Below are positions 20,497-62,350 of a stretch of DNA of 64,000 bases, piece by piece. The position numbers and the translations under genes are program-made. The notes beneath the pieces are model-generated. The model ran no database searches. It was not told where the DNA came from and saw only the letters and a list, made by a program, of their open reading frames with translations. The first letter of the stretch is position 1, and every line of letters begins with the position of its first letter. This DNA comes from a virus. The DNA lies in the IMG/VR virus record IMGVR_UViG_3300037042_003932, positions 79,879 to 143,878 of that record. The stretch is one strand, 5' to 3'.

Positions 20497-20808
20497 CTAC
20501 GCCCCTCCACCCATAGTCAGGCGCGTAATCGTCAACGTGCCCGTGTTGATCATGCCCTTCGCACCGATGAACGTTGGCCCATGAATGGTGTAAGGCATGA
20601 GCACATCCTTAGGAAGCTTGTGCGTGGTTGCCGCCGCTGCGGGAGCAATCGCCCCGAAAGCGATATAGCAATCCTCCGTTGCAAACAACTGCACCTGCGT
20701 ACCGTGAGGAATAGCCGCTGCAGTAACCGCCGTGGCCCCCGTAGTGAAAGTGAGGATCTCGGGGTCTGCGTAGGTCGGCATGCCGTAGTCAATGCTGGTG
20801 ATAATCAC
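20497..20808 (-). CDS. Small beta-rich virion decoration-like protein
   Basis: A 103-aa protein starting with GTG (20806-20808) and preceded by a near-consensus AGGAGGT site. The sequence is Ala/Thr-rich with short strands and a glycine-rich end (LTITRLTMGGGA). The form fits small cement, decoration or fibre-tip proteins, but no family is named. The next fibre gene starts immediately after its stop. Confidence 0.68.
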   Translation of the reverse strand: MIITSIDYGMPTYADPEILTFTTGATAVTAAAIPHGTQVQLFATEDCYIAFGAIAPAAAATTHKLPKDVLMPYTIHGPTFIGAKGMINTGTLTITRLTMGGGA

Positions 20809-20817
20809 GATGACCTC

Positions 20818-46978: not shown

Positions 46979-47593
46979 CTACCTCATCAAAAACGTCAGT
47001 AAATCCTGTGACCAATCCTCGAGTCTTACGAAGATCAACGGGCTGTTTAGGTCTCCTAACCTAGACCAACCAACTGCTTCGAACTTAGGGGATGCAGAGG
47101 TCACCATGTCACCAGGAGCTGAGAACGAATACACGATACCAAAGTGCGTATCAGCTGGTTTCCGTATAAATCCTCGGAGAGTAAAGTCCAGTATGTCTGG
47201 AGCAGAACGCGAAGGGTCTGTGTTCTTTCGCGTAGCTCCTGAAAACCGAATGCTCTCGTTCATCCGGTTCAACGCGGATATCTTGAAGAGCTGCTCCCCT
47301 TGGTTGTCTTCGGGTTTGACACTCCCACCTACGCCTATGGACAATTTACGCAGTAACGACGCATCAGTTCGCCGGTACACGAGAATCTCAGGCTTCCAGC
47401 CGTACACGTACGAGTAGGTGACCACTTGGAGAACTGATACGTCGTTATCGGCTTCTTCTTGGGGCACGAACACCGAAGCCGATCTGATGTCACTCAGCAG
47501 GTTCTTGTACGCGGGAGTGTACGCTTGTAAACCCAGAAGCTTATACGGCTGAAGGATCTTTGCCGGGAACACCAAGACCTCGTTGTTCTCCAT
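46979..47593 (-). CDS. Degenerate Nudix-like protein
   Basis: A 204-aa protein from the ATG at 47591-47593 (GGAG 7 nt upstream). KPEILVYRRTDASL, RKLSIGVGGSVKPED and FIRKPADTHFGIVYSFS follow the strand order and wording of phage Nudix-fold proteins. The helix that should carry the Nudix box reads SALNRMNESI, lacking the paired REx2EE glutamates. It is probably a non-catalytic nucleotide-binding relative. The next small Cys-rich gene overlaps its start by 53 nt. Confidence 0.65.
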   Translation of the reverse strand: MENNEVLVFPAKILQPYKLLGLQAYTPAYKNLLSDIRSASVFVPQEEADNDVSVLQVVTYSYVYGWKPEILVYRRTDASLLRKLSIGVGGSVKPEDNQGEQLFKISALNRMNESIRFSGATRKNTDPSRSAPDILDFTLRGFIRKPADTHFGIVYSFSAPGDMVTSASPKFEAVGWSRLGDLNSPLIFVRLEDWSQDLLTFLMR

Positions 47594-47876
47594 TCTCTTT
47601 CTCCTCTTGCTCCACACGAGCGAGAATCCCCTTGAGGATCGTCTGAGTTAAGATGTTAGGATACATTATAGCTTCTGCCTTGTCGCAAAAATGCTCATTA
47701 CACCCTGCAGGTCTTTCCGACCTGGGCAACTCACAGCCATCATCTTTCTGGTGGGGACAAGGACCCCAAAGGTGATCATCTGGATACTTCTTGGCCAATT
47801 CGTCGATATCCCTCCAATAACGTTCACAACACTCACCGCACCTAATAGGACAAACGATTCCGTGTTCTTGGGTCAT
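47541..47876 (-). CDS. Cys-rich YkgJ-like putative metal-binding protein
   Basis: A 111-aa protein. AGGAG precedes the ATG at 47874-47876. The N-terminus CPIRCGECCERYW has the C-x3-C-x2-CC type of cluster seen in the zinc/iron-chelating YkgJ family, and later CPHQKDDGC and GCNEHFC complete the cluster. It could bind Zn or an Fe-S cluster. The role in the phage is unknown. Confidence 0.65.
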   Translation of the reverse strand: MTQEHGIVCPIRCGECCERYWRDIDELAKKYPDDHLWGPCPHQKDDGCELPRSERPAGCNEHFCDKAEAIMYPNILTQTILKGILARVEQEEKENGEQRGLGVPGKDPSAV

Positions 47877-48092
47877 AGGGCTCCTTACATCAGATTGGAG
47901 TATAGGTAGCACAATTCGTTTAGAACAGACCTGAAAGAAAGCCAGCGCAAAAGAGGGATAGACTTGGAGCGTAGAAGCACACAAGTGTTGTTGTTGTTAC
48001 ATAGAGAGTTCGCGCATAACCTGTCAAAAGTTATGTTACGATCTGTTACTGACGCTGCTAGGGGTACTATCAGGCGCAAAGACGTTCTCGTG
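47877..48092 (-). other. Intergenic region with possible promoter
   Basis: A 216-nt gap with no frame carrying a good start site. On the minus strand TTGACA (48022-48027) and TATGTA (47998-48003), 18 nt apart, form a weak promoter for the genes to the left. Confidence 0.35.
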
Positions 48093-48314
48093 TCACCATT
48101 CACGAATGCCATGCCGTACCTCTTCGTTGTTCCATACCGTGATAAAACAATAGAAACAACACTCCGAAGCCTTCCTCCGTTCTTTCCAAGGGACTGTTGC
48201 CAAGAGACAGGACAATCCGTTTTTCGCTGTTTGACGAAAAGCAGCATCAAAGGTTTCTCGGTACCACTTAACGCCGGTTCGAGCTGACAGTCCGTCGTAC
48301 ACGTGTCGTCGCAT
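48093..48314 (-). CDS. Small protein, leftmost member of the small-ORF block
   Basis: A 73-aa protein rich in Arg, Cys and aromatic residues (SECCFYCFITVWNNEEV). GGAGG lies 7 nt before the ATG at 48312-48314, a strong start signal. It overlaps the next gene by 47 nt. It shares size and composition with the tandem small genes to the right but no clear alignment. Confidence 0.55.
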   Translation of the reverse strand: MRRHVYDGLSARTGVKWYRETFDAAFRQTAKNGLSCLLATVPWKERRKASECCFYCFITVWNNEEVRHGIREW

Positions 48315-48540
48315 AACAAAACCTCCATAGGGAATTTTCGAATTCTACTTGTATGTCATCTGCCCTCCGACGAAAGATTTCATCTCGGGTATTTACAGCT
48401 GTTTCGAGACTAAGCCTCTGTGGCTTACTTAACTTTGCTCCGTTACACCAACACGAGTAATACGCGATGGTGTACATCCAGCTGTAAAGATTTATGTTTG
48501 GGTCTGAGCTGAATCCGGAGTTCACGCCTATGATATCCAT
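48268..48540 (-). CDS. Small-ORF block protein
   Basis: A 90-aa protein with a weak AAGAA site. Aromatic and Cys-rich N-terminal half (LYSWMYTIAYYSCWCNGAK), basic C-terminus (TTRVRRTVSSNRR). No family; the style fits the block. Confidence 0.5.
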   Translation of the reverse strand: MDIIGVNSGFSSDPNINLYSWMYTIAYYSCWCNGAKLSKPQRLSLETAVNTRDEIFRRRADDIQVEFENSLWRFCYATTRVRRTVSSNRR

Positions 48541-48827
48541 TGTTTGTTCTTGGGATTTTGGATCATTCGGTTAGTGTTGGCCTTGTAGATTCGTTCGAGG
48601 CATACGACGGACATCTCGAAGCGCATGAGTGTTGAATCTCTGAAATTACGCGCCTGGGCTATGCAATACGCCCCGTCAAAGTAAAACCAGAATGGCCGCG
48701 TACGCCGCAGATAATGACTATTATCCACGAAGTAGTGATGAAAGTTAGCAACCTTGAGTCTAAATGACTCTTGGGCTTTTTGTGAGTTCTTTCCGGTGTA
48801 CAAGCCTGCGTATGTGCTTGAGTTCAC
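48528..48827 (-). CDS. Small-ORF block protein
   Basis: A 99-aa protein. I chose the GTG at 48825-48827 because it gives a GTGA overlap and AAGG 8 nt upstream; an in-frame GTG at 48836 would add three residues. Aromatic centre (PFWFYFDGAYCIAQ) and an RFEMSVVCLERIYKAN helix that resembles the C-terminal helices of other block members. Confidence 0.55.
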   Translation of the reverse strand: MNSSTYAGLYTGKNSQKAQESFRLKVANFHHYFVDNSHYLRRTRPFWFYFDGAYCIAQARNFRDSTLMRFEMSVVCLERIYKANTNRMIQNPKNKQWIS

Positions 48828-49090
48828 GTCCTCCACCTTTTGTCGTTAGGATCAAAGCTGAGCCTGTTCAAGTTCGTACCGAAGTTCTGGGTCTGATAGC
48901 GTATGGTGCTACGAAAGTGGGTGTCGCGTACCCTAGTGTAGGAGCTCATACTTTGAATCGCCCACGCGTGGTACGAATCAGAGATGCCTGTTTTTAACAG
49001 AGATCCCTGGAGTTCTTTTGAGAAATACTTCTTGTTAAAAGTGTGACACTTAACCTCTTCAAACTCAGGTCTTTCAAAGCGTTTCACCAT
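48824..49090 (-). CDS. Small-ORF block protein, paralogue of the next gene
   Basis: An 88-aa protein that aligns with the 49084-49368 protein. EEVKCHTFNKKYFSKELQGSL corresponds to DKVKLHAHNQNYYAHELLWHL, and both have an AW followed by a VRD/GSR region and an R-Y segment. The start may be ATG at 49090 or GTG at 49087 (GTGA overlap). Function unknown. Confidence 0.58.
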   Translation of the reverse strand: MVKRFERPEFEEVKCHTFNKKYFSKELQGSLLKTGISDSYHAWAIQSMSSYTRVRDTHFRSTIRYQTQNFGTNLNRLSFDPNDKRWRT

Positions 49091-49368
49091 GCAGGCCCCA
49101 AACCGTTAAAGCGGGCTTCAAAGCCCGGCCTATTCACATAGGACACATAATTCAGACGCAAGTAATGAACGACCCTATTGAACTGAATAGAGCGCGATCC
49201 TACGTAAGAGAGTACGCTGTGGACTACCCACGCGGGAGTACCAATACCAAAAGTGAGTGGATCATTAATCCTAGGCAAATGCCAGAGAAGCTCGTGTGCG
49301 TAATAGTTTTGGTTATGCGCGTGCAATTTTACTTTATCAAGCTCAGTTCGACCTTTGTGATGTGTCAT
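49084..49368 (-). CDS. Small-ORF block protein, paralogue
   Basis: A 94-aa protein with GGAGGG 5 nt before the ATG and a TAATG overlap. Residues around PAWVVHSVLSYVGSRSIQFN align with the proteins at 48824 and 49368 (AW-x8-S). Arg, aromatic and His-rich. Confidence 0.6.
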   Translation of the reverse strand: MTHHKGRTELDKVKLHAHNQNYYAHELLWHLPRINDPLTFGIGTPAWVVHSVLSYVGSRSIQFNRVVHYLRLNYVSYVNRPGFEARFNGLGPAW

Positions 49369-49640
49369 TAAGACCCTCCATTAGCTAGCATGTCCGTGTA
49401 GCTCTGATTTTGATAATATGTAACGTCACGAAAGTAGCGAATACGGGACTCAACGTGTGACTTTATCCTCGTTAAGGACCATGCTCGAGACTCTGGTACA
49501 TTGGGCGTTGCGTATAAACACCAGAAAATCTCTACCATAGAAAAACGCTTACTACTCGTATACGATCTGACATGGCCAATCTCTTGGCTGAGTGTGTAAG
49601 CACTGAGGTTATTACGCGCTTGGATGTGTGAGTACGTCAT
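49368..49640 (-). CDS. Small-ORF block protein, paralogue
   Basis: A 90-aa protein that aligns through RAWSLTRIKSHVESRIRYFR with its two neighbours to the left. It forms a three-member paralogue set at 48824-49640. Function unknown. Confidence 0.58.
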   Translation of the reverse strand: MTYSHIQARNNLSAYTLSQEIGHVRSYTSSKRFSMVEIFWCLYATPNVPESRAWSLTRIKSHVESRIRYFRDVTYYQNQSYTDMLANGGS

Positions 49641-49894
49641 GGGAGCTCTTTTAATAAAGGAACAAACGCAGATGCCGTTCTGTTATGACTCATAAGCATG
49701 TAAATGAATTTGAGATTCGTTACGAGACTACTAAAATCGTACGCTGTCTTCTGCTGAGCCCATACCATTCGTTCTATATTTCTTCTGTACAGCTGAGCAG
49801 AATACCATCGCTGTTGCTCGAATAACTCACCTGACGTACGAATGACAAGCCTGGTGAGCTCGTGATACCTGGTGTACTTATCCATGGTGATCAT
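49637..49894 (-). CDS. Small-ORF block protein
   Basis: An 85-aa protein from the ATG at 49892-49894 with AGGAGG 4 nt upstream. It ends with the helix FSSLVTNLKFIYMLMSHNR, close in form to the C-terminal helix of the 53715-54192 proteins (VVSNLKAAY-x-HMETLSRRR). A longer reading of this frame upstream was rejected because it lies opposite the plus-strand gene. Confidence 0.58.
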   Translation of the reverse strand: MITMDKYTRYHELTRLVIRTSGELFEQQRWYSAQLYRRNIERMVWAQQKTAYDFSSLVTNLKFIYMLMSHNRTASAFVPLLKELP

Positions 49895-49970
49895 GCTTCC
49901 TCCTGTTGCACGATATGTGAATGCCATTACGCTCTTATACCCAGCCCTACTATTATTTCGGAGGTCACGG

Positions 49971-50606
49971 ATGAACAAAGAAGAACGAAGAGTAGCTATA
50001 AAACTAGAACTCTTAGAGGCTCGAGCCAAACAGCAATATAATCTTCGCATACGCCATAAGGAGGATGTGTTCGGGTGGCAACTACTGAAATGGATTGTGC
50101 TATTCCTAACGTTCTTCCAGATCGATCTGGTCGAGAGAGCCTGGGTAACGATTGGGCGAACAGTGTACGTGCCCAGGCGATATGACCCCAAACAAAGGAA
50201 GGTCTACCGTTATGGAGACATTCCTTTTGAAGACTACTGCACCCTCTCGCATGAGATCGAACATGTCAAACAATACGAGAGGTTTGGAGTCATCCTCTTC
50301 CTCCTAATCTATATCTTCCCGTTCTTTCCAATAGGGCTCGCATATGGCCGATACTATCTGGAAAGGCAAGCATACCTGGCGGGAGTCATCGCGGCGAAGA
50401 GTATCGATTATACTAGGTGGGCTCGGCAGCGCTATCTGAAGACACCGGTTCCTCCACTGGAGAAGGCGATTCAGGCGTGCTCGACGTCTCCGTGGTATCT
50501 GTGGCCATGGCCGTTTCCGAAGTCGGTACGTCTGTGGTTTGGCAGGGCTCTTCTTCGCGAGGAAGAACGATACCGCAATGTTCTTCAATCCTCTCGAGAC
50601 GCGTGA
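49971..50606 (+). CDS. Putative membrane-associated zinc metalloprotease (HExxH)
   Basis: A 211-aa protein, the only plus-strand gene in this block. GGAGG lies 6 nt before the ATG at 49971. TLSHEIEHVKQYERFG (residues 91-106) is a classic HExxH zinc motif, and Glu131 in YYLERQAYLAG is a likely third ligand. Hydrophobic helices lie before (41-52) and after (107-124), so the active site is probably at the membrane. The C-terminus is aromatic and Arg-rich. Its last 194 nt overlap an opposing small gene on the other strand. A role in processing host or phage membrane proteins is inferred. Confidence 0.7.
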   Translation: MNKEERRVAIKLELLEARAKQQYNLRIRHKEDVFGWQLLKWIVLFLTFFQIDLVERAWVTIGRTVYVPRRYDPKQRKVYRYGDIPFEDYCTLSHEIEHVKQYERFGVILFLLIYIFPFFPIGLAYGRYYLERQAYLAGVIAAKSIDYTRWARQRYLKTPVPPLEKAIQACSTSPWYLWPWPFPKSVRLWFGRALLREEERYRNVLQSSRDA

Positions 50607-50766
50607 AGATATTGTCCAAGCACCGCCCGATCTCCTCGACTAGCTTATTCGTGTTTTCCTTGAGCTTCGCGTTGATAACGATGAGCTCTTTGTTCATGTC
50701 CATCAGGTCTTTTTTCATCTCTGGTGCAATTTTAGAGGGAGCACGTACGATTCTTCTTCTAGACAT
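50413..50766 (-). CDS. Hypothetical coiled-coil protein with Thr/Ser/Pro tail, antisense overlap
   Basis: A 117-aa protein with AGGAG before the ATG at 50764-50766. The N-terminal half is helical (IAPEMKKDLMDMNKELIVIN), followed by CLDNIFTRLERIEEHCGIVLP. The last about 45 residues are low-complexity Thr/Ser/Glu/Pro. Those last codons lie opposite the 3' end of the HExxH gene (194-nt convergent overlap). Confidence 0.6.
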   Translation of the reverse strand: MSRRRIVRAPSKIAPEMKKDLMDMNKELIVINAKLKENTNKLVEEIGRCLDNIFTRLERIEEHCGIVLPREEEPCQTTDVPTSETAMATDTTETSSTPESPSPVEEPVSSDSAAEPT

Positions 50767-50779
50767 TTTTTTCTCCTTG

Positions 50780-51007
50780 TCACATTACGCTGTAAATGGT
50801 GCGTAGGTACTTTGCCACGACTCGGAAATCTACTCTACTTATTTCGCTCCTTCCGTGAACCTTATTCAGGTCTTTAGGTTGTAACAGCAGATAGAAGGTC
50901 GCAGTTCGAAGACCTACTCCTTTTGTTAGGTGCTGCATAAGTACTGAGATCACGTACTTATCTCCATACTCATGTGTTCCTGTAATATATATGCTCGGTT
51001 TCAGCAA
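50780..51007 (-). CDS. Small-ORF block protein
   Basis: A 75-aa frame from a TTG at 51005-51007. A GTG at 50953 with GGAG 8 nt upstream is an equally good start (57 aa). The longer form aligns with the next protein from the first strand on (SIYITGTHE against DFYLVTSGN), which favours TTG. It ends with AKYLRTIYSVM. Confidence 0.5.
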   Translation of the reverse strand: MLKPSIYITGTHEYGDKYVISVLMQHLTKGVGLRTATFYLLLQPKDLNKVHGRSEISRVDFRVVAKYLRTIYSVM

Positions 51008-51233
51008 CGATATAGCCCATCCTTAACATCTGGCATAGTAAGCCCAGATAGTCAAATACGTCCTTATGGGTCGTGTGGTATGTTGGGATGTACGTGTAGC
51101 ATCTATAAGAAATGAACTTCAGATAATGCGAGAATCTTTTTGCGTTCATCGTCGTGGCTAATACGACAGCTTGGTTGAGGTTTCCTGAGGTTACTAAGTA
51201 AAAATCTTTGTCTTCGAAGATGCTAGTGTCCAT
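50970..51233 (-). CDS. Small-ORF block protein
   Basis: An 87-aa protein with a TAATG overlap and GGAGG 8 nt before the ATG at 51231-51233. Aromatic and Thr/Tyr-rich (YRCYTYIPTYHTTHKDVFDY). Weakly alignable to the preceding gene. Confidence 0.57.
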   Translation of the reverse strand: MDTSIFEDKDFYLVTSGNLNQAVVLATTMNAKRFSHYLKFISYRCYTYIPTYHTTHKDVFDYLGLLCQMLRMGYIVAETEHIYYRNT

Positions 51234-51418
51234 TAATCCAACCTCCACCAACCAAAGGGTATCTCTGTGATTCCCTTGAGTGCCCTTACTTCTTCATCGC
51301 GCAGCACACATATGCGATGATCTATAGGATATATACCCCATCGATTAAGCCACAACGTGTGGCCCCACCTCTGTCTTCTGCATTTCGTGAGTGACTTGTA
51401 TCTTTCAGCTGCTGGCAT
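51233..51418 (-). CDS. Small protein, WWRLD paralogue 1
   Basis: A 61-aa protein with AAGGA before the ATG at 51416-51418. It aligns along its length with the next gene: M-x-AA ... LT-x-CRR-x-RW at the start and W-W-R-L-D at the end. A clear tandem duplicate. Function unknown. Confidence 0.62.
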   Translation of the reverse strand: MPAAERYKSLTKCRRQRWGHTLWLNRWGIYPIDHRICVLRDEEVRALKGITEIPFGWWRLD

Positions 51419-51427
51419 GACATCCTT

Positions 51428-51616
51428 TCAATCCAACCTCCACCAGTGTAAAGGTCTCTCGAGTAATGCTTGGGTTGCTTGGGTTTCTTCGATCATCCAA
51501 AGTTTAATAGAGGTGTTTTTATTGACTACGACACGCGACCGTACAACCTTCAACATAAAGTCCCATCTATTTCGGCGACACCAGGTCAACGTCCTATACA
51601 GATCTGCTGCGGTCAT
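51428..51616 (-). CDS. Small protein, WWRLD paralogue 2
   Basis: A 62-aa protein from the ATG at 51614-51616 with the same AAGGAcacc-type site as its paralogue. It shares TAADLYRTLTWCRRNRW and the PLHWWRLD end. The middle has diverged freely. Confidence 0.62.
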   Translation of the reverse strand: MTAADLYRTLTWCRRNRWDFMLKVVRSRVVVNKNTSIKLWMIEETQATQALLERPLHWWRLD

Positions 51617-51842
51617 GGTGTCCTTTCTCCATACGGTGAATCCCAAAGGCTGTGAGGGCTTTGGCTGTCTCTATGAACCTTTGGTCTTGGCGTTCCGACC
51701 GAAGAGTATCTGTGAGCCTGTTACGGATTAAATCAGCATAGATGTGATAAAAGGTCAGAGCAGCGCAAATCCAACAGTTGGATGCATACGTCATCATGTT
51801 GATGGGGTGTGCGTAAAAGGTAACGTCAAATGGGGTACGCAT
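51594..51842 (-). CDS. Small-ORF block protein
   Basis: An 82-aa protein with GGAG 7 nt before the ATG at 51840-51842. Hydrophobic, Cys-containing centre (NMMTYASNCWICAALTFYHIY). It overlaps its downstream neighbour by 23 nt. Function unknown. Confidence 0.55.
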   Translation of the reverse strand: MRTPFDVTFYAHPINMMTYASNCWICAALTFYHIYADLIRNRLTDTLRSERQDQRFIETAKALTAFGIHRMEKGHHDRSRSV

Positions 51843-52026
51843 TACGAAACTCCATAGCGACTGAGACAAAGTAATAATGGAACATAGTGTGGTTGCGCAC
51901 TTTTCGATGCTCCTCTCCCGCTGCTTCTTCGCGATACATCAGCTTGAACACACCATTTCCCAACCCGACAGACGCTGCAATAAGGCTAGTTAAGCGCATA
52001 CGCTTAATCTCTTCATGGTCATACAC
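51826..52026 (-). CDS. Small-ORF block protein
   Basis: A 66-aa protein from a GTG at 52024-52026, GGAG 10 nt upstream, 8-nt overlap with its upstream neighbour. Helical and basic; ends with YYFVSVAMEFRNAYPI, again an amphipathic helix with late aromatics. Confidence 0.52.
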   Translation of the reverse strand: MYDHEEIKRMRLTSLIAASVGLGNGVFKLMYREEAAGEEHRKVRNHTMFHYYFVSVAMEFRNAYPI

Positions 52027-52270
52027 GCCTAAAACTCTCCATAGCGCTGTAGTGACTGCGTAGTTGATTCATCAAGAACTTCGCATGGTTCAGGATGCTG
52101 GTATGATAGAAGTGACTAGGATACATATTCTGATGGTTCCGTGACAGGAGAGAGACATACTTCTCAAAGAAATCCCGTACAAAGCGTACATTCATGTCGT
52201 GTGCGCTTTTACAGTAACGATCACTGCTTATGATTGTTTTGTGGTTGATCACGTACGTCGTGGACAGCAT
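52019..52270 (-). CDS. Small-ORF block protein
   Basis: An 83-aa protein with AGGAGG before the ATG at 52268-52270. The C-terminal LMNQLRSHYSAMESFRR matches the block's recurring motif (hydrophobic-x3-L-x2-xY-x-x-ME-x-x-RR). N-terminal half basic and polar. Confidence 0.58.
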   Translation of the reverse strand: MLSTTYVINHKTIISSDRYCKSAHDMNVRFVRDFFEKYVSLLSRNHQNMYPSHFYHTSILNHAKFLMNQLRSHYSAMESFRRV

Positions 52271-52493
52271 TCAATACCTCCTCGTATGTGTGAAACAAGA
52301 ACCGAATAGCCGAAGTCAAGTTGTACCCCACTAACCTGTCGTAGAATGCGATGGGTTGGTGAATCTCATAGCCCTTCTCGAAATAGTTATAAAGATTACT
52401 CTGACTTATGGCGTACTTTGTGTACCAGTACGTGTACGCCCCCTTTACGCAATCCAGTATATGCTCTGTGTGAGCTATCGTTTCTCCCGTCAT
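52221..52493 (-). CDS. Small-ORF block protein
   Basis: A 90-aa protein starting in an ATGA overlap. Tyr-rich (YTYWYTKYAISQSNLYNYF), with a helix TSAIRFLFHTYEEVLNAV. It overlaps its downstream neighbour by 50 nt. Confidence 0.52.
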   Translation of the reverse strand: MTGETIAHTEHILDCVKGAYTYWYTKYAISQSNLYNYFEKGYEIHQPIAFYDRLVGYNLTSAIRFLFHTYEEVLNAVHDVRDQPQNNHKQ

Positions 52494-52774
52494 GGCAAGA
52501 GTCCAAAGGTCAGTGTGTTCCTATAGAACGAGCGCAAGAGCCAACACGTTCGGTCAAAAGCTTCGTTGCGTTTCTTGTAAATGAACCTGTGGTTGAGCCG
52601 GGGCATCACACTCCACACATCAAGAAGACCCACACCCAATCGGATTCGACACCTCAGTTCGTGGTCCTCGTCATAGAGTTCGTTCATACGAGATACTGCG
52701 TTGGTGCTATTAACATTATTCAAGGGAACCATCCGACTTATGCGGTGTTCATCTACCGTAGGATGTATTTGCAA
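52490..52774 (-). CDS. Small-ORF block protein
   Basis: A 94-aa protein from a TTG at 52772-52774 with AAGGG 7 nt upstream; the ATG at 52732 is an alternative with a weaker site. Arg-rich with DRTCWLLRSFYRNTL near the end. Confidence 0.48.
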   Translation of the reverse strand: MQIHPTVDEHRISRMVPLNNVNSTNAVSRMNELYDEDHELRCRIRLGVGLLDVWSVMPRLNHRFIYKKRNEAFDRTCWLLRSFYRNTLTFGLLP

Positions 52775-53030
52775 AGAAGTTACCCTTCCCTTCTAGGTAC
52801 GTGTAATAACGCCAATGTACCATTACGATGTGTTTGAACCTCTCTCGAGTCAGCTCGTTTGTACCAGTTGCGTAGTTCCAAAAACGAAAACCTCCGCTCA
52901 CAGCTACGCGAAGATAACTGTCGTATTCCATGCGGACAGCTCCATGCAACTGTGAGGTTTTATTCGAGGTTTTCGCCATGAAAGTGACAGCTGCTGTTTC
53001 GTTATAGGGTCGAGGGACAAGCGTGTGCAT
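52749..53030 (-). CDS. Small-ORF block protein
   Basis: A 93-aa protein from the ATG at 53028-53030 with AAGGA 6 nt upstream. Contains a W/Y-rich helix near the C-terminus (FKHIVMVHWRYYTYLEGKG). Function unknown. Confidence 0.55.
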   Translation of the reverse strand: MHTLVPRPYNETAAVTFMAKTSNKTSQLHGAVRMEYDSYLRVAVSGGFRFWNYATGTNELTRERFKHIVMVHWRYYTYLEGKGNFFANTSYGR

Positions 53031-53044
53031 ACTCGGTCCTTTCT

Positions 53045-53302
53045 TTACGAGGTAAAGATTGCTAGCTCCCCGGCGTTTATGCGTCGCACGAATTGGGCAT
53101 AACGTATGTCGAAATGCGTATCCCAATAGAAGCGCCGCATATGAATGTTGATAACTCTTGACCAACCTCTCCAAACATTAGAAGGCATAAGATCGTCGGT
53201 GTTGTAAGGATCAGCGGCATAACTAATGAAATAGTTAAATAGGACCTCGCGCTGTTCACGCAATATACGGCTGTCCCGGCACAATTCCGTCAATAAGTTC
53301 AT
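53045..53302 (-). CDS. Small-ORF block protein, RR-tail family
   Basis: An 85-aa protein in a TGATG overlap. It aligns with the four genes to its right: M-N-x-L start, then EDS/RDS-x5-R, LFNYFISYA, and a C-terminal R-rich helix. Clear tandem paralogue. Confidence 0.6.
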   Translation of the reverse strand: MNLLTELCRDSRILREQREVLFNYFISYAADPYNTDDLMPSNVWRGWSRVINIHMRRFYWDTHFDIRYAQFVRRINAGELAIFTS

Positions 53303-53517
53303 CACTCCTCTCTCCTCCTCTTATATGCCTCAACCTCATAAGCATCATGCATATGCTCGGTAACATGCCGCAACTTATTTAAAAGGGTTAAGTAGCGGGG
53401 CGGCATACCCACTGGCCTCAAGGGGTAACGAAGGAGATAGACAAGATGTTGAAATAATACATACCTTAGATCTTGTACTCGTTTACTATCGTCGCATGCG
53501 AGCTTCAAAAAGTTCAT
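53302..53517 (-). CDS. Small-ORF block protein, RR-tail family
   Basis: A 71-aa protein with GAGGAGG before the ATG at 53515-53517. MNFLKLACDDSKRVQDLR at the start and YEVEAYKRRREE at the end are the family features. It overlaps its upstream neighbour by 32 nt. Confidence 0.6.
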   Translation of the reverse strand: MNFLKLACDDSKRVQDLRYVLFQHLVYLLRYPLRPVGMPPRYLTLLNKLRHVTEHMHDAYEVEAYKRRREE

Positions 53518-53740
53518 TACGCCTCCTCACGTTATCTCGCCGCATCAGCGTTTCTATTTCTCTGTAATGTGCCTGCATGCCACACGTGATTTGAAGGAAT
53601 CTTCCTTCGATATACTTATGCGACATGATGGCTGCGCATCGATGGTCGTACTTTGCGTGGTAAAGTAAATTCTCAAACAGCTGCTGTTTCTTGTCTCTCA
53701 GGGTGCAGCTATCCTCATAGATGTATGTTAAAGTGTTCAT
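53486..53740 (-). CDS. Small-ORF block protein, RR-tail family
   Basis: An 84-aa protein (MNTLTYIYEDSCTLRDKKQQ; MQAHYREIETLMRRDNVRRR) that matches the family both at the N-terminal strand and at the RR helix. Nucleotides 53740-53814 just upstream of its start belong to a near-identical repeat shared with 53978-54052. Confidence 0.62.
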   Translation of the reverse strand: MNTLTYIYEDSCTLRDKKQQLFENLLYHAKYDHRCAAIMSHKYIEGRFLQITCGMQAHYREIETLMRRDNVRRRNELFEARMRR

Positions 53741-53954
53741 AGCTTCTACGCCTACTCAGAGTTTCCATGTGCTCATACGCCGCCTTCAGGTTAGAAACTA
53801 CCATCGCAAATTGATCATCGACGTTGTCCTCGGATAAGAAATATGTGTGAACCGGTGATCCTTCTGAAGAACGAATGAAGTTCTCAAATCTCGTGGCGTT
53901 CTGGGTGTACAACAAGACACAGGCGTTGTGGGCGTATACCAAGAAAATGCTCAT
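53715..53954 (-). CDS. Small-ORF block protein, RR-tail family
   Basis: A 79-aa protein. MSIFLVYAHNACV opens and LKAAYEHMETLSRRRSYE closes the protein. It is the close paralogue of the next gene: the C-terminal 25 residues are almost identical while the middle has diverged. Confidence 0.65.
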   Translation of the reverse strand: MSIFLVYAHNACVLLYTQNATRFENFIRSSEGSPVHTYFLSEDNVDDQFAMVVSNLKAAYEHMETLSRRRSYEHFNIHL

Positions 53955-54052
53955 ACAATCTCGCTCCTTAATGTTTATAGTTTCTACGCCTACTCAGAGT
54001 TTCCATGTGCACATACGCCGCCTTCAGGTTAGAAACTACCAGTGCAAATCGG
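53740..54052. repeat. Direct repeat pair in the small-ORF block
   Basis: Copy 1 at 53740-53814 and copy 2 at 53978-54052, a 238-nt period, are near identical (a few substitutions in about 75 nt). They encode the C-terminal halves of two adjacent paralogues and the following gene boundary. Confidence 0.8.
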
Positions 54053-54192
54053 TCTTCACATGCTTCATACGATAAGAAGTACACGTGAACAGACGAGCCT
54101 TTTGCACAAAGGATAAAGTTTCTAAAGCGCGTAGCGTTGTGCCCCGTGTACGAGACACAAGAGTTATGAGCGTATATCATGAAAATGCTCAT
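53968..54192 (-). CDS. Small-ORF block protein, RR-tail family
   Basis: A 74-aa protein, the most similar neighbour of 53715-53954 (MSIFMIYAHNSCV; LKAAYVHMETLSRRRNYK). AGGAGC-type site upstream. The shared 3' segment suggests recent duplication or gene conversion. Confidence 0.65.
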   Translation of the reverse strand: MSIFMIYAHNSCVSYTGHNATRFRNFILCAKGSSVHVYFLSYEACEDRFALVVSNLKAAYVHMETLSRRRNYKH

Positions 54193-54455
54193 GCAGACTC
54201 GCTCCTTTCTGTGCTCATATATGTGTAGGCATCTTCAAGATCTTGAAACACACACTGGTAATATTCCAATTGGAAAGAACTAGACGCAAGAGATACGCGG
54301 GTAGATTGGGGTCTACGGGAATACGAACAGATGACAGCGAACTTCAACTTCATTTGTGCCCGAATGCGTCGGCTATCGTATACCGCAGCTCCCAAAGATT
54401 GTTCAAGCTCTTGAAAATCTCTTAACTTCTCTCGTGTATGCGACGAAATAGTCAT
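54189..54455 (-). CDS. Small-ORF block protein
   Basis: An 88-aa protein from the ATG at 54453-54455 with AGGAG 7 nt upstream. Helical start (TREKLRDFQELEQSLG) and the terminal helix FQDLEDAYTYMSTERSES, another variant of the block motif. Confidence 0.6.
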   Translation of the reverse strand: MTISSHTREKLRDFQELEQSLGAAVYDSRRIRAQMKLKFAVICSYSRRPQSTRVSLASSSFQLEYYQCVFQDLEDAYTYMSTERSESA

Positions 54456-54663
54456 ATGCACTCTCCTGATCTGCCACAGCGCAGCTAAACCAATAGGCAA
54501 GATGGTTGGTGACTATCTGAATCTCATACGCCTTGGGGGCGTTGGGAATCCTCATAACATACCGAATGCCTTCAAATGACTGAGCCACTGACGTCGTGGC
54601 TTGTCGCACAGACAATACGCCACGTAACGCGGTCGTGTCGTCCCTGGGTATGAAATAACCCAT
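54403..54663 (-). CDS. Small-ORF block protein
   Basis: An 86-aa protein with AGGAGG before the ATG at 54661-54663. It contains SAYDYFVAYTREVKRF at the end. It overlaps its downstream neighbour by 53 nt and is the first gene of the block in transcription order. Confidence 0.6.
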   Translation of the reverse strand: MGYFIPRDDTTALRGVLSVRQATTSVAQSFEGIRYVMRIPNAPKAYEIQIVTNHLAYWFSCAVADQESAYDYFVAYTREVKRFSRA

Positions 54664-56110: not shown

Positions 56111-58225
56111 CTAGTCTACGTGCTGAGCGATATACGTACCGGCAGGGCGACCGAGCAATGAGCCCAGCAAGAAGCCTTTGGGGCCAAGAGCAAAAGAACC
56201 AGCCAATCCACCAACGACATCTCCCGCTATCCCACCAAACAATGCCCGACCGAATTGATCAAAGCGCTCTCCAGGATGCGCAGTCGCTGCAGCAAGGGGC
56301 GCAGACATAAAGGGGTGTAACGCCGAGCTCAAGTAGAGAAGCCCCTGGCGTCCAGAGGTGTAGCGGTCTGCGGGCACTTCGGGACCGTCAGGGCCGTCAG
56401 GGTTGTGGGGGAAGTCATCATAGTAACTGCCCTGCTTGCCGTGCATGGCGTCCACAATCTTGTCCACAGCATACGAAGAGCCCATCGCAGTACCAAGGCT
56501 ACCTGCTATCTCACCCATAGGTGGAACAGCCTTACCGAGGGATTGGAGGGCCGGATACTTCGAGGCTTGCCAGGGTTTTGGGATGCTGTCGCGCAACAAC
56601 AAAGAAGTACCGGCACCAACCAAACCACCAACGCCACCCGCGAACGCACTCTCAGCCAATCCATGACGTTTGATATGAGCGTGTAAACCCTTCATGCCCT
56701 CGGCGTCGTACACGCTCTTCATAGCGCGACGAGAGCCAAGCATCCCCGACACACCACCTGTGGCTGCTCCAAGAAGAGCTGAGATGCCCGTGAGCCCTAA
56801 GCTTGCTTTCGCGAGGTTGCCACCAGAGAGCCCCATCTGCTTAAGCAAAATAGGAGCGGTGATTCCCGAGGACAAAGCACCTGAGATGGTGCTCGTGAGT
56901 ATCCGATGCCTTCGGTCTGCTCCAACAGCCTTGTGATACAACTCTTGCGGGTCTTCCACAGGGGCAGGATTGACGTCCGAAGCGATCTTGGGGATCAAAG
57001 AATCAATCAGACTCGAAACCTTATCGATGTCCCAGCTTCCCAAAGGTTGTGCATCAGGCTTGGGCACTGGGGGACAACGCTTCAGCTTCTCCTCGTGCTG
57101 TGAGGAGGTAGTGATGCCTGACGTTGAGGTTGGCCCAGAGATAGGAGGGAAGTTAGCTCCTGCAGCTACCTTGGGCAGAGACTGGTGCTGCTCTTGGAGC
57201 TTGTACTTCTCCTCGTTCTTCTTGCGAATTCGATAGCGCATGTACTGGTCAGCGCCCTCTTCTACGAGGTCACCACCAAGGCGAAGAGCTCGAGCGACGC
57301 CCTTCAACTCTTCAGCTCTCTTCTCCGACTCGTAGATGCGCTGAGCTACCAAAGCCACAATATCCGACGCCGTCTTCTTCTCGCTAGAAGTGGCAGCGTC
57401 TTCCATCTTCTTGAGCCGCTTGTAGTAGTCTGGGATCTCAGCCAGGTGGTCAAGAGCAACACGCTTGGAGGTAGTCCTGTCAGGCGTATGCTCGGTCTCG
57501 ACTTCAGTACCCTTCGAGAGCTCACCAGAGTCAACGTCAGACTCAGTGACGTTCTCCTCTTTAGCGCGACCACCACCTAAAAAACGAGCATGACCCGTAG
57601 CCAACTCATAAGCTTCAGCCTCGAGTTTATGCTTGTTGAGTCCTTTAGACTCTGCAAAGGCATGGAATGACTCGTCGTCGGGGTTGTGGTTCTTGTTGAA
57701 GAACTTGACCAAGGTCGAACGAGAGGAGTCTTCGTTGTCTGCAGCAGTCTTCTTGTTGGTCACAGTGCCCTCTTCATTCTCGGTATCCCCATCCTGCTTG
57801 CCCTCTTCAAGACGCACAGCTTCTTCGACGTGATTGGCGATGGGGTGAGCTTGGTCGTAGGTCAAACCTTGGCGCTTCATCATGTCGCGCTCGGTAACCT
57901 CGTGCCCAATGAGCGCTGAGAGGTCTTTGCCTTCGTTTCCACTCTCAATCCAGATCTCATTCTCTGGGATGAAAGGGTAAACGTAATGATGACCACCTAC
58001 CGAGAAGCTCTGGTCTTGCTGACGTGCCTGGCCACCGTCAACAGCACAGATGTCGATGCGGTCTATGACCTCTTTGGCGATGTCAGCGGCGGTCTTCTTG
58101 CGCTCGGGTAACTTCTTGATATTCTTAGTTTCATGAGCCCACTCAAGCGCTTTACCCTTAGGCAATTCACCACGAGCCTCGGCGGCAAACATGAAGCGCT
58201 GTTGCGCCTTAGATTTGAACGGCAT
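56111..58225 (-). CDS. Probable internal or ejected virion protein with HE motif and hydrophobic C-terminus
   Basis: A 704-aa protein from the ATG at 58223-58225. It starts with MPFKSKAQQRFMF, a motif I recall from many phage virion-associated proteins. Residues about 75-140 hold GHEVTE (107-112) and YDQAH (123-127), a possible zinc-type site. A long polar, charged, disordered middle follows, with two KKTAxDI segments. The last about 250 residues are Gly/Ala-rich hydrophobic helices. This layout fits a protein packaged in the capsid and ejected into or across the host membrane. It overlaps its upstream neighbour by 17 nt. Confidence 0.65.
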   Translation of the reverse strand: MPFKSKAQQRFMFAAEARGELPKGKALEWAHETKNIKKLPERKKTAADIAKEVIDRIDICAVDGGQARQQDQSFSVGGHHYVYPFIPENEIWIESGNEGKDLSALIGHEVTERDMMKRQGLTYDQAHPIANHVEEAVRLEEGKQDGDTENEEGTVTNKKTAADNEDSSRSTLVKFFNKNHNPDDESFHAFAESKGLNKHKLEAEAYELATGHARFLGGGRAKEENVTESDVDSGELSKGTEVETEHTPDRTTSKRVALDHLAEIPDYYKRLKKMEDAATSSEKKTASDIVALVAQRIYESEKRAEELKGVARALRLGGDLVEEGADQYMRYRIRKKNEEKYKLQEQHQSLPKVAAGANFPPISGPTSTSGITTSSQHEEKLKRCPPVPKPDAQPLGSWDIDKVSSLIDSLIPKIASDVNPAPVEDPQELYHKAVGADRRHRILTSTISGALSSGITAPILLKQMGLSGGNLAKASLGLTGISALLGAATGGVSGMLGSRRAMKSVYDAEGMKGLHAHIKRHGLAESAFAGGVGGLVGAGTSLLLRDSIPKPWQASKYPALQSLGKAVPPMGEIAGSLGTAMGSSYAVDKIVDAMHGKQGSYYDDFPHNPDGPDGPEVPADRYTSGRQGLLYLSSALHPFMSAPLAAATAHPGERFDQFGRALFGGIAGDVVGGLAGSFALGPKGFLLGSLLGRPAGTYIAQHVD

Positions 58226-58757
58226 TCTGGGCCTCTGGGGGTTTTCTGTTCGCCAAAGCAAGACCACCACCAATGGCACCAGCAGCCAAGAGCCCTCCAC
58301 CAATAGACTTCACTGGGTTTCGAGCGATGGCTCCCCACATACGACTTCCCAAAGAAGGAGTGTTCAACTTGTTGACCAACTTCGTCTGGGAAGCGAGGGC
58401 ATCAGTGATGTTAGATTTATGGATGTTAGGAGAACCCGAGCCACGCTGGGCGTTCATCCAGTTAAGCGCTTCATTCTGCATATTACCTATGCCCTTGCGA
58501 CTCTGCTGAAGCTTTGCGCCCTGCCGCACCGTTTCAGCGTGCTGTGGGTGCAGCTTATCCATAGTCAAAGCTGGGTCCTTCACCATGCGGTTTCCGGTGT
58601 TTACTGCCGCACGAGAAGCCCGCATCTTCTGGGCAAGCTCAGGGTTAGAAGCATCCATCTCACGCATCATGCGGTTAGCTGCTTCTTTTTCAATATCGGC
58701 GTACGCCAGCTTGACGCCATATTCGTAGGCTTCGGTAATATCTTGGGGTGTGAGCAT
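58209..58757 (-). CDS. Probable internal virion protein, AYEYGVKLAY family
   Basis: A 182-aa protein. Residues 10-19 read AYEYGVKLAY, identical in position and sequence to the next protein. A helical, polar middle is followed by a Gly/Ala-rich hydrophobic C-terminal helix (GGGLLAAGAIGGGLALA). The shared N-terminal tag may be a capsid targeting or packaging sequence, by analogy with T4 internal proteins. Membrane insertion on ejection is plausible. Confidence 0.66.
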   Translation of the reverse strand: MLTPQDITEAYEYGVKLAYADIEKEAANRMMREMDASNPELAQKMRASRAAVNTGNRMVKDPALTMDKLHPQHAETVRQGAKLQQSRKGIGNMQNEALNWMNAQRGSGSPNIHKSNITDALASQTKLVNKLNTPSLGSRMWGAIARNPVKSIGGGLLAAGAIGGGLALANRKPPEAQNAVQI

Positions 58758-58811: not shown

Positions 58812-59312
58812 CTAGTCGCGGGAGTTGTGCACGGCGTTGCCGATGCCGAGGCCCAAGCCGGTGAGACCAGCAGCGCCAATGCCCGCAGCGCCGAGACCGT
58901 ACGCAGCCGGGTGACGGCCCATGTGAGACAGGAAGCGGTCAGCGACGTTGTTGACAGCGCCGTAACTACGCGAAGCGATCTCACCCATCTGTGGGGCGTT
59001 GGGGATACCGATGGTCGAGCGAAGACCCTTCAGCTCGTCCATGATACCACCACCACGGCTCTTGAGAGCCTGCATGATTTCTTCAGCAGACATCTGGCTG
59101 ATGCCCTTTTCGGGAGCAGCCGCCATCACTTGGGGATTCGGGAAGGCATCGGGCGGCAGACGCGTCGACTGCGGGGCTCCACCACTGACGCCACCTTCCC
59201 ACGACTCGAGTGGTCGGCCCATCGCGTCAGCATTCGCGCTCTTCTGCAGATGCTCATACGCGAGCTTTACGCCGTATTCATAGGCGGCTTGCATATCTCG
59301 TTGCGTGATCAT
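58812..59312 (-). CDS. Probable internal virion protein, AYEYGVKLAY family
   Basis: A 166-aa protein with the same residues 10-19 tag (AYEYGVKLAY) as the previous gene. The middle is polar, with a segment KSANADAMGRPLESWEGG. The C-terminal helix is Gly/Ala-rich and hydrophobic (GLGAAGIGAAGLTGLGLGIG). A paralogue with the same tag-linker-membrane-helix plan. Confidence 0.66.
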   Translation of the reverse strand: MITQRDMQAAYEYGVKLAYEHLQKSANADAMGRPLESWEGGVSGGAPQSTRLPPDAFPNPQVMAAAPEKGISQMSAEEIMQALKSRGGGIMDELKGLRSTIGIPNAPQMGEIASRSYGAVNNVADRFLSHMGRHPAAYGLGAAGIGAAGLTGLGLGIGNAVHNSRD

Positions 59313-59374: not shown

Positions 59375-62350
59375 CTACACGCCCTCTTTCGATAGGAGTT
59401 TTTTTAGCCTGGAGGTTACGTACATGTGGGGGAGTCGAGCGAGGTCTTTAATACCCAGTTCGATTAGATTCTTACAGAGTGTCTTAGCGCGAACACCTAT
59501 GACTTCCCAGCTGTGTCCAGAACACGCATGCAGGATGCTGTCCTTTGTTTCTTGGGTCATCTTTGGTCTGTAATTCCTACAGATAAAGGAATCTTCTGCT
59601 GAAGTGAATCGAAGGCGAGGATCGTTAAGGGATATCCTCTTTCCTTCCTCTCGTTCTTTTACTCTGAGTTCACGCTTCTCCCTATCAACGACAACAAACT
59701 TATCTCTGGGGATTTTGGGGGGCTGGGCTTTTTTGGGTTTATGTGCTCTATCTCGGATATAAAGCTCAGACATGCTGTTAAGGTCCCTTAGGAAAGACTT
59801 GAGTCCTGGGATGTCCAATCGGTATGGGGAAGGGTAAACAATCTTCGACTCTTCGGGAAACAAACTATCCCAAGCAAACAAATAGGGAGTAGAGATATAT
59901 AGTCGAACAGATGATCTTAAAATCTGACGCTCTGCGTTAAGATCTACAGTGTCGTCTGGTTTCAAGTAATCCATGTGGCCCATGATGTCCGAATCAGTTG
60001 AAGTCATAGCATAAAAGAATTGTGCATACTGAGTGCAGTACGCGTTGTTACCTCTCTTTCGTTTGTATACGCACTCAGGGTTAGGCGGTGTGGCTTTGTA
60101 ATCACGATAGAACTCTTTCCACGGCAAACCAAAGAATGTTAGACCTTTGGTGCGTAAAACCTTTATCGTGTAGCTCATTTTTCCAATGTTGAACGGAACA
60201 TCGTAAGGTGTCTTCGCTCCTCGGACACGACCCTTACTCTTCCTACCTCTGTTCTCAGTGCTCAGGGGGTCTTTGGGGTCGTTAGGCCGATGCTTGAATC
60301 TAGTGGCGAGGTCTATTTGCATATCGTCCACTTGCACCCCAAACAGCCACACAGGTAACTCAATTGTGTCTGGGCTTAAGTAATCACTATGTTTCTCGAT
60401 TCTAGCGAATAATGACGACTCACGCATCTCAGGCATCGGCATCTCTCGAATCTCTTTCGATAAGAACTGATCCATTAAAACCATATTCGTTAAGAAATAA
60501 AAACGCTCTCGATAGTTACTATCAGCTCCGGGTAGTAATTTGCAGGCACTCGCTTTTGGTGACGGGTACTCCAGAAGAATATTCTTAATACCCGCAGAGA
60601 TTGCTGGTGGTATTTTGCACATACGAGTGAGGAAAGCTACGTAACGGGGTACAGAGATCTCAAGGACATACTTACCTGCAATGCCGTTAGTGAACACACC
60701 AACATGTTGTAACAGAGGAGCCAGAGAACCAATCTCACGGTTTAAGAAGTCGAATTTAGACTTGTACTTCCGCACAGCGCTATACCAAGCATTCATAGTT
60801 AGAGCCAACGAGAGGGTGTATGCGCTGAAATAGTGTTTGGACTTTTGTGAGTATTGGCTGTTCGTTAACACAGGGCTTACATGCTCAGTACACGGAATAC
60901 CAAAACGATCTGTCCACACCAAAGAGTTCAACACTGCGTAGGTTGGGTCCATAAAGTCCAAGCAGTCTAACGTTCGGGCACGCTGGTCCTCTGGGGAGGC
61001 TGATGCCCCATACCTAGAGAGAAAATGAGACAGTGATACTGTGAACATAATCTTCGTAAGTATCTCCGGTGTCTTTTCTTCTATCGCGGAGCTCAGCAAT
61101 CGTGTTTTTGAAGACTCCGCGACACAAAGAATTTCGGAGTAAACATCTCTATTAGAGGACAAGAAACACCCATCGAATAACTCAATCAGTTTACTCCGTA
61201 AGTTTCTCGAATCAGAACTTTCGTACCCAAAGATCTTTGATAACTGCGCGTAGCTATGATTCAAGAATCTGTGATTTTGCGTTAATGAGATAGCCGAGGC
61301 ATCTGTGATTAACTGGAACAGAGTTAAGTAACGTAGACGTGGGTTTAGGTCACTCTCATTATCGGCTATTCGATCAATGGAGTTGGCCGTCTTAAGAACT
61401 AGACCGGTTTTCCCGTCTTCGTCTTGGAGTTTACAACGTAAAACGTCGACAGATATCCCATGAGAGGAGAGAAAATCAGCCAAAGGAATATATTCATTAG
61501 GAAATGAACGAAGAAAAGGGACAGTCAGAAGTAGCTGGGTTTTGACGGCACACCCAAATGAATCTCGACCGTTAGGTTCATTTAAGAAACCTAAGTCAGG
61601 ATACTTACAGAGAAGTTGTTTGATATCCTTACCTTTAACGTGAGCTACGGCTTCGTGCAACCCAGGCTGTGTAACAAAGAAAGAGGCAAAGTTGGAAGAT
61701 GTGACTTTAGCAAAAGTAGATGACGTGATCACGCTGCTTACACTCTTACAAAGAGTAAAAGCAGCGTCAAAAAGTGGAGAGTTGTTATAGAGCGCAAAGT
61801 ACAGCCGGGATGTCGCGCACTCATACGCACAGGGGTCGTAAATTCGAAGAGTGGGCAGTAACAGAACGGCTAGCCACCCCACGTACTGTCCGTGTAGGAC
61901 ACGACCTATGGACTCAGGGCTAAGAGGCTTCTCAAGCTTCGGAGGAGCAAGAAGCTTGTCCAGGGACAGAAGAACATGGGGCCACGATACTGACCAGCAA
62001 GCACCCAGCTCCGGAAGATCGTAGAGTCCAGCGGTCTCAGCCGAGCTGAGCTTGCTGTACCATATTTCCACACATGGGACAGCTTCGTCAGAACGGCGTA
62101 TTTCTGCTGTGGGTGCTCGCAGCAGAGGGCGGAACACAGAGAACTGCAGGCTGCTGTCGTGTGTCGGCATTCTAGTGAAGGATTCTGCTAACAATCGGAA
62201 CAGAGCGGGTTGGTCTAGGTGCTGGGCCACGTACGCCGTGAGGGCTTCTGGGGAGTCACAGGCTGCAGCCAGAAGCCCATCAGGGTGAAGACCGTCAGGC
62301 AGATACCAGGGGTGATTGTACTGTGGTTGGTTGGTGACTAAATTCGTCAT
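59375..62350 (-). CDS. Large protein of unknown function with Myb-like C-terminus
   Basis: A 991-aa protein with GGAGG upstream and its own promoter region. The N-terminal two thirds are helical and hydrophobic-polar mixed without a motif I recognise. The middle is basic around residues 700-730 (TENRGRKSKGRVRGAK). The C-terminal about 80 residues (LRFTSAEDSFICRNYR, GHSWEVIGVRAKTLCKNLIE) follow the pattern of SANT/Myb-like helix-turn-helix domains. It could be a DNA-binding, replication or virion protein. The gene contains a TTACTCCGTAA dyad at 61191-61201. Confidence 0.65.
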   Translation of the reverse strand: MTNLVTNQPQYNHPWYLPDGLHPDGLLAAACDSPEALTAYVAQHLDQPALFRLLAESFTRMPTHDSSLQFSVFRPLLRAPTAEIRRSDEAVPCVEIWYSKLSSAETAGLYDLPELGACWSVSWPHVLLSLDKLLAPPKLEKPLSPESIGRVLHGQYVGWLAVLLLPTLRIYDPCAYECATSRLYFALYNNSPLFDAAFTLCKSVSSVITSSTFAKVTSSNFASFFVTQPGLHEAVAHVKGKDIKQLLCKYPDLGFLNEPNGRDSFGCAVKTQLLLTVPFLRSFPNEYIPLADFLSSHGISVDVLRCKLQDEDGKTGLVLKTANSIDRIADNESDLNPRLRYLTLFQLITDASAISLTQNHRFLNHSYAQLSKIFGYESSDSRNLRSKLIELFDGCFLSSNRDVYSEILCVAESSKTRLLSSAIEEKTPEILTKIMFTVSLSHFLSRYGASASPEDQRARTLDCLDFMDPTYAVLNSLVWTDRFGIPCTEHVSPVLTNSQYSQKSKHYFSAYTLSLALTMNAWYSAVRKYKSKFDFLNREIGSLAPLLQHVGVFTNGIAGKYVLEISVPRYVAFLTRMCKIPPAISAGIKNILLEYPSPKASACKLLPGADSNYRERFYFLTNMVLMDQFLSKEIREMPMPEMRESSLFARIEKHSDYLSPDTIELPVWLFGVQVDDMQIDLATRFKHRPNDPKDPLSTENRGRKSKGRVRGAKTPYDVPFNIGKMSYTIKVLRTKGLTFFGLPWKEFYRDYKATPPNPECVYKRKRGNNAYCTQYAQFFYAMTSTDSDIMGHMDYLKPDDTVDLNAERQILRSSVRLYISTPYLFAWDSLFPEESKIVYPSPYRLDIPGLKSFLRDLNSMSELYIRDRAHKPKKAQPPKIPRDKFVVVDREKRELRVKEREEGKRISLNDPRLRFTSAEDSFICRNYRPKMTQETKDSILHACSGHSWEVIGVRAKTLCKNLIELGIKDLARLPHMYVTSRLKKLLSKEGV

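What the first reader, a model, noticed from the sequence alone, without database searches (positions are those of the whole stretch)
48093..54663. Block of about 24 tiny overlapping genes expanded by tandem duplication
About 6.6 kb on the minus strand carries about 24 genes of 56-103 codons, nearly all with their own purine-rich Shine-Dalgarno and most overlapping by 1-53 nt. Several are visibly paralogous (53045-54192, 48824-49640, 51233-51616). Many end in a similar amphipathic helix ending in (hydrophobic)-x-x-L-x-x-x-Y-x-x-M/E then Arg/Lys, for example LKAAYEHMETLSRR, LRSHYSAMESFRR, MQAHYREIETLMRR and LVTNLKFIYMLMSHNR. No known phage family is apparent. Fast-diversifying, dispensable small-protein operons in large phages often target host defence or takeover; here that is inference.
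Basis: partly seen in the sequence, partly recalled or inferred. Interest (0 to 1): 0.78.

Follow-up and report, generated by a model that had tools for sequence, protein, structure and literature searches.

The report
Tandem array of diversifying phage mini-proteins
A large uncultured phage carries a run of about 25 tiny overlapping genes, partly built by repeated duplication and now very different from one another except for a short shared helix near the end; relatives carry unrelated arrays of the same style elsewhere, which suggests a reservoir of fast-changing mini-proteins aimed at the host, although their function is untested.

Summary
On the minus strand, 27 ORFs tile 47541-54663: 22 SD-led ORFs of at least 55 aa against 2.6 (max 7) in dinucleotide shuffles; 19 of 26 junctions overlap by 1-53 nt. 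Tandem duplication is supported for 11 genes: A (g03-g07, distant g16), B (g20-22), C (g14-15); for g03/g04 and g14/g15 the DNA repeat unit is one gene plus ribosome site. Unbiased motif sampling missed it, so common ancestry of all members is unproven. Relatives carry unrelated tiny-protein arrays elsewhere, one with M-x-H-[FVI] starts on 17 proteins. No credible database hit for any member. Most likely: lineage-specific, diversifying small effectors against host functions or defences (about 40%). A T4-type injected internal-protein set is a serious rival.

The parts
54403..54663 (-). g01, 86 aa
   Evidence: ATG, strong SD -12.0; family not shown
54189..54455 (-). g02, 88 aa, possible distant member of family A; C-terminal L-E-D-A-Y
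   Evidence: p=0.0075
53968..54192 (-). g03, 74 aa, family A
   Evidence: phmmer 1e-32 to g04
53715..53954 (-). g04, 79 aa, family A, tandem copy of g03 (period 238)
53486..53740 (-). g05, 84 aa, family A
53302..53517 (-). g06, 71 aa, family A
53045..53302 (-). g07, 85 aa, family A
52749..53030 (-). g08, 93 aa
   Evidence: SD -5.3; no family
52490..52774 (-). g09, 94 aa (TTG start); helix signature
52221..52493 (-). g10, 90 aa
   Evidence: weak SD -3.0
52019..52270 (-). g11, 83 aa, possible distant member of family A
   Evidence: p=0.02
51826..52026 (-). g12, 66 aa (GTG start)
51594..51842 (-). g13, 82 aa
51428..51616 (-). g14, 62 aa, family C
   Evidence: phmmer 8e-11 to g15
51233..51418 (-). 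g15, 61 aa, family C, tandem copy of g14 (period 195)
50970..51233 (-). g16, 87 aa, distant family A
   Evidence: phmmer 3e-4 to g04
50780..50953 (-). g17, 57 aa from GTG (75 aa from TTG at 51007); helix signature
50413..50766 (-). g18, 117 aa, acidic, 2% aromatic; not an array member by composition
49971..50606 (+). conserved HEIEH-containing gene that splits the block; overlaps g18 antisense
   Evidence: homologs in G004, G006, G019, G022, G025, G028
49637..49894 (-). g19, 85 aa; helix signature
49368..49640 (-). g20, 90 aa, family B
   Evidence: phmmer 3e-6 to g22
49084..49368 (-). g21, 94 aa, family B; helix signature
   Evidence: phmmer 2e-9 to g22
48824..49090 (-). g22, 88 aa, family B
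48528..48827 (-). g23, 99 aa (GTG start); helix signature
48268..48540 (-). g24, 90 aa
   Evidence: open frame; weak SD
48093..48314 (-). g25, 73 aa
   Evidence: SD -10.0
47885..48112 (-). g26, 75 aa; helix signature
   Evidence: SD -7.1
47541..47876 (-). g27, 111 aa, cysteine-rich, acidic; end of the run, not an array member by composition

Best explanation
SHOWN: a compact minus-strand run of tiny genes, nearly all with their own ribosome site and mostly overlapping the next. Part of it grew by tandem duplication of a gene-plus-ribosome-site unit (families A, B, C), followed by strong divergence. A weak amphipathic C-terminal helix signature (F, V/I/L, L/M, Y, M on one face) recurs in both halves of the run. 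Relatives lack the array at this locus and carry other, unrelated arrays. INFERRED: the genes are transcribed together with coupled translation; the products are small, mostly basic, probably helical effectors; the shared helix serves dimerisation or docking and the variable remainder gives target specificity; they are made during infection to bind and inhibit host proteins or defence systems that vary between hosts; amplification and divergence are selected as in the amplification of tifA by T4 against ToxIN.
For: Real genes. Tandem paralogy, nearest neighbours most alike; near small-gene pairs z>4 in 12 of 138 against 4 of 195 far pairs. Protein-level constraint: g03/g04 dN/dS about 0.38 with third codon positions most changed; codons of the F, L and Y positions vary freely while the residues are kept. 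Helix signature. Mostly basic, aromatic-rich products. Array absent at the same locus in relatives. Unrelated arrays in relatives. Precedent: tandem amplification of the small antitoxin gene tifA in T4 (PMC9391042); TifA is a small RNA-binding inhibitor of ToxN (PMC10853763).
Against: No member matches a protein of known function. No promoter signal enrichment in the region, and nothing shows that the block is expressed early. AlphaFold models are of low confidence (pLDDT 60 and 55). Inter-family pairs barely exceed reversed controls (p=0.07), profile comparison of A with B is null and unbiased motif samplers fail, so a single superfamily is unproven. Amino-acid composition lies closer to translated random DNA than to the other proteins of the phage, which also fits young or weakly constrained genes. 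Host unknown.
Confidence: 0.4

Rival explanations
1. Injected internal proteins: small basic proteins packaged in the head and injected with the DNA to block host enzymes, like the T-even internal proteins. The shared segment would be a packaging or docking tag and the rest would be the variable inhibitor.
For: [quoted passage not shown] Array members are small and mostly basic with one weakly shared segment; relative G022 has an N-terminal shared segment M-x-H-[FVI].
Against: Here the shared segment is C-terminal, and a strict form of it is absent from 86 larger proteins of the phage, whereas a capsid tag would be expected on other core proteins. No homology to internal proteins.
Confidence: 0.2
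2. Weakly selected gene birth and duplication: an accessory region where duplication and loss of ORFs is mostly neutral, with a few useful members.
For: Codon and amino-acid composition is atypical and near that of translated random DNA; 12 or so ORFs have no detectable relative; families are specific to this phage.
Against: g03/g04 show dN below dS; strong ribosome sites on nearly every ORF; helix residues kept through codon changes; 7 kb kept open.
Confidence: 0.2
3. Subunits of one hetero-oligomeric assembly or regulatory RNA-binding set, joined through the C-terminal helix, with a role in phage gene expression rather than against the host.
For: Signature positions -7, -4, 0, +4, +7 fall on one helix face, as in coiled-coil or docking helices (geometry); many members basic.
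Against: Relatives that share the core genome lack these proteins at this locus, so no core process seems to need them.
Confidence: 0.12

Closest known systems
[quoted passage not shown]
   Same: About 24-26 mostly small genes clustered in a large phage, most without known homologs (PMC6873191).
   Different: SPO1 genes are mostly spaced by about 100-200 nt, have their own promoters and show little paralogy (4 of 276 pairs z>4). Here genes overlap, promoter-like signals are not enriched and tandem paralogs are present.
T-even internal proteins (IPI and others)
   Same: Small, basic, very diverse proteins with one short conserved segment; IPI* inhibits GmrS/GmrD (PMC3012670).
   Different: Shared segment here is a C-terminal helix and not an N-terminal targeting peptide; packaging untested; no sequence match.
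T4 tifA (dmd-tifA locus) tandem amplification
   Same: A small phage gene amplified in tandem, giving counter-defence (PMC9391042).
   Different: T4 copies are near-identical products of experimental evolution; here copies have diverged to about 22-66% identity. No family match.
Anti-CRISPR (acr-aca) loci
   Same: Clusters of small, unrelated-looking phage genes (general knowledge).
   Different: No helix-turn-helix Aca-like regulator found among the 27 proteins; Acr homology could not be tested.

Membership tests
SPO1-type host-takeover module | Cluster of about 24-26 mostly small genes | tested here: met
   27 ORFs of 57-117 aa
SPO1-type host-takeover module | Many strong promoters between the genes | tested here: not met
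   8 sigma-70-like sites against 13.6 expected, only 1 on the minus strand; overlapping genes leave no room. Other promoter types are not covered by the scan.
SPO1-type host-takeover module | Location in a terminal redundancy, early expression | not testable with these tools
   Record is a 143,878-bp linear record without end repeats; no expression data
T-even internal proteins | Small basic proteins | tested here: met
   Most array members have pI above 8
T-even internal proteins | N-terminal capsid targeting sequence shared with other head-core proteins | tested here: not met
   Shared segment is C-terminal; strict tag absent from 86 larger proteins
T-even internal proteins | Packaged in the head and injected | not testable with these tools
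   Needs virion proteomics
Anti-CRISPR (acr-aca) locus | Aca helix-turn-helix regulator in the operon | tested here: not met
   No HTH family match among the 27 proteins
Anti-CRISPR (acr-aca) locus | Inhibition of a CRISPR-Cas system | not testable with these tools
   Needs an assay
TifA family | Sequence homology to TifA | tested here: inconclusive
   No PHROGs or Pfam match below E 0.003; TifA itself was not compared directly

The most novel reading that the evidence does not exclude
Phages of this clade keep lineage-specific mini-protein arrays built on one plan: a short constant segment (a C-terminal helix here, an N-terminal M-x-H-[FVI] in relative G022) that docks to a common partner, and a body that diversifies by tandem duplication, possible gene conversion and rapid substitution, giving a portable repertoire of host-directed binders.
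Probability: 0.2. Interest if true: 0.8.

Novelty: new variant of a known kind. Interest (0 to 1): 0.55.

Why it matters
Small accessory genes make up much of large phage genomes and are mostly unexplained. Here the process that makes them can be seen at several stages in one operon: a fresh tandem copy (g03/g04), older copies (g05-g07, g20-22, g14-15), and members where perhaps only a short helix is still shared. Gene finders based on codon usage miss about half of these genes, so such arrays are probably undercounted. If the products are counter-defence proteins, the array would be a compact test set of candidates.

Tried and rejected
Unbiased one-motif Gibbs sampling over the array: no better than shuffles, so the helix signature rests on targeted tests with controls at other spacings and a hold-out. 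Family A against B by hhalign: null. Inter-family pairwise scores against reversed controls: p=0.07. Global idea that all 25 are one superfamily: not adopted. IMG/VR scans with the neighbour gene, g04, the 991-aa gene, the plus-strand gene and the family B alignment: no relative; family A alignment too divergent to scan. Bacterial genomes with g03/g04: one 20-residue match in Larkinella, judged chance. A family B match in G028 inside a 501-codon frame, E=0.004, judged chance. PDB sequence search: nothing. Weak library hits at E 0.0006-0.1 over 27 queries: treated as chance. Fold comparison was not run because both models are of low confidence. Cultured phage Arash (27% terminase identity) looked too distant to help. 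Rfam: nothing.
Full report
The window is G000:C1:79879-143878 of an IMG/VR virus record of 143,878 bp, linear and probably incomplete. It is a tailed phage: terminase, DHH phosphoesterase, thymidylate synthase and a helicase are recognised. The terminase finds 37 IMG/VR loci at 42-93% identity and cultured phages only at about 25-28%.

What is there. From 54663 down to 47541 the minus strand carries 27 consecutive ORFs of 57-117 aa, named g01 to g27. Dinucleotide shuffles of the stretch give 2.6 SD-led ORFs of at least 55 aa on average and never more than 7; the real strand has 22. SD strength at the chosen starts is far above that of other start codons in the same stretch. Nineteen of 26 junctions overlap by 1-53 nt. 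A codon-usage gene model trained on the long genes recovers only about half of these ORFs, because the block lacks the usual G preference at the first codon position.

The block is not one uninterrupted array. A plus-strand gene at 49971-50606 with an HEIEH motif lies between g18 and g19 and overlaps g18 antisense. It has homologs in G004, G006, G019, G022, G025 and G028. In G004 and G006 it starts 62-64 bp from the homolog of the gene at 46979-47617, with no tiny genes between; here g19-g27 fill that gap, and g01-g17 lie on the other side. So, relative to these relatives, tiny genes were gained on both sides of the plus-strand gene, or lost in the relatives. g18 and g27 are acidic and poor in aromatic residues, unlike the rest.

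Paralogy. Within-block phmmer gives family A (g03-g07 with g16), B (g20-g22) and C (g14, g15). Leave-one-out profiles with shuffled and reversed controls confirm these and suggest g02 and g11 for A. Adjacent genes are the most alike, as tandem duplication predicts. At the DNA level g03 and g04 are a repeat of period 238, and g14 and g15 of period 195, each about one gene plus its ribosome site. g03 and g04 have dN 0.23 and dS 0.62 with third positions most changed, so the protein is under constraint. Differences between g03 and g04 are concentrated in the first 49 codons: 49 of 147 nt differ there and 6 of 75 in the last 25 codons; silent differences 11 of 27 against 2 of 20, p=0.025. That fits gene conversion of the 3' part or extra constraint there. 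The other 12 or so ORFs have no demonstrable relative.

The C-terminal helix. Around these sites F at -7 is enriched (8 of 15 against 0.94, familywise p=5e-4); M at +7 and V/I/L at -4 pass at 0.03 and 0.04. F-x6-[LM]-x3-Y occurs in the last 45 residues of 9 of the 27 block proteins and in 4 of 280 other small proteins of these phages. Codons at these positions vary freely. On a helix the five positions lie within about 80 degrees of one face. Against this, unbiased motif sampling finds nothing better than in shuffles and families A and B do not match by profile. I take it as a real shared feature of many members, by descent or by common constraint, not as proof of a single family.

Relatives. 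None of 36 related records contains family A or B at a credible score. But G025 has a four-gene array (83959-85081, all starting MTPFE), G006 has small arrays at 20163-20996 and 172074-173141, and G022 has 17 small proteins starting M-x-H-[FVI] between 85.7 and 109.3 kb, against 2 such starts among the 331 small proteins of the other five phages. In G006, G022 and G025 these lie within several kb of the homolog of the 991-aa gene at 59375-62350, as here. These arrays do not match each other or any library.

Function. No member matches Pfam, PHROGs, NCBIfam or PADLOC at a credible level, nor any phage in GenBank by tblastn for g04 and g21. AlphaFold gives low-confidence helical models for A and B. 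The best-supported reading is an operon of diversifying small effectors with host or defence targets, on the evidence of lineage specificity, tandem amplification, constraint and the T4 tifA precedent. T-even internal proteins, which are diverse except for a targeting tag, are the closest functional analogy for a constant segment with a variable body, but the tag here is C-terminal and not seen on larger proteins.

Noticed in passing
G022 record, L055-L056 (85.7-109.3 kb): Seventeen small ORFs start M-x-H-[FVI], often in overlapping runs; the third codon is CAC in all 17 although CAC is 65% of His codons in that phage, so the conserved start may also be an RNA-level signal.
   Followed up: partly
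window 49971-50606 (+): Conserved HEIEH-containing gene, possibly a membrane-associated zinc peptidase, overlapping g18 antisense by about 194 nt; homologs in six relatives but no Pfam match.
   Followed up: partly
L077 (G025 83959-85081): Four tandem small paralogs all starting MTPFE, in a relative of this phage.
   Followed up: partly
L064-L065 and L072 (G006 20163-20996, 172074-173141): Small tandem paralogs sharing a Y-L-x-E-K-x-[VM]-E segment.
   Followed up: no
window 59375-62350 (-): 991-aa protein without any family match whose distant homologs lie near tiny-gene arrays in G006, G022 and G025.
   Followed up: partly
window 2262-6254 (-): 1330-aa protein with a zinc carboxypeptidase (M14) domain and a weak Kelch match, in a region of probable tail genes.
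   Followed up: no
window 58209-58757 and 58812-59312 (-): Two neighbouring proteins share an N-terminal segment (AYEYGVKLAY) and then differ, possibly a tag on virion proteins.
   Followed up: no
window 56111-58303 (-): Protein with DUF5661 and a start PFKSKAQQRFMFA that recurs in relatives G006, G022 and G025.
   Followed up: no
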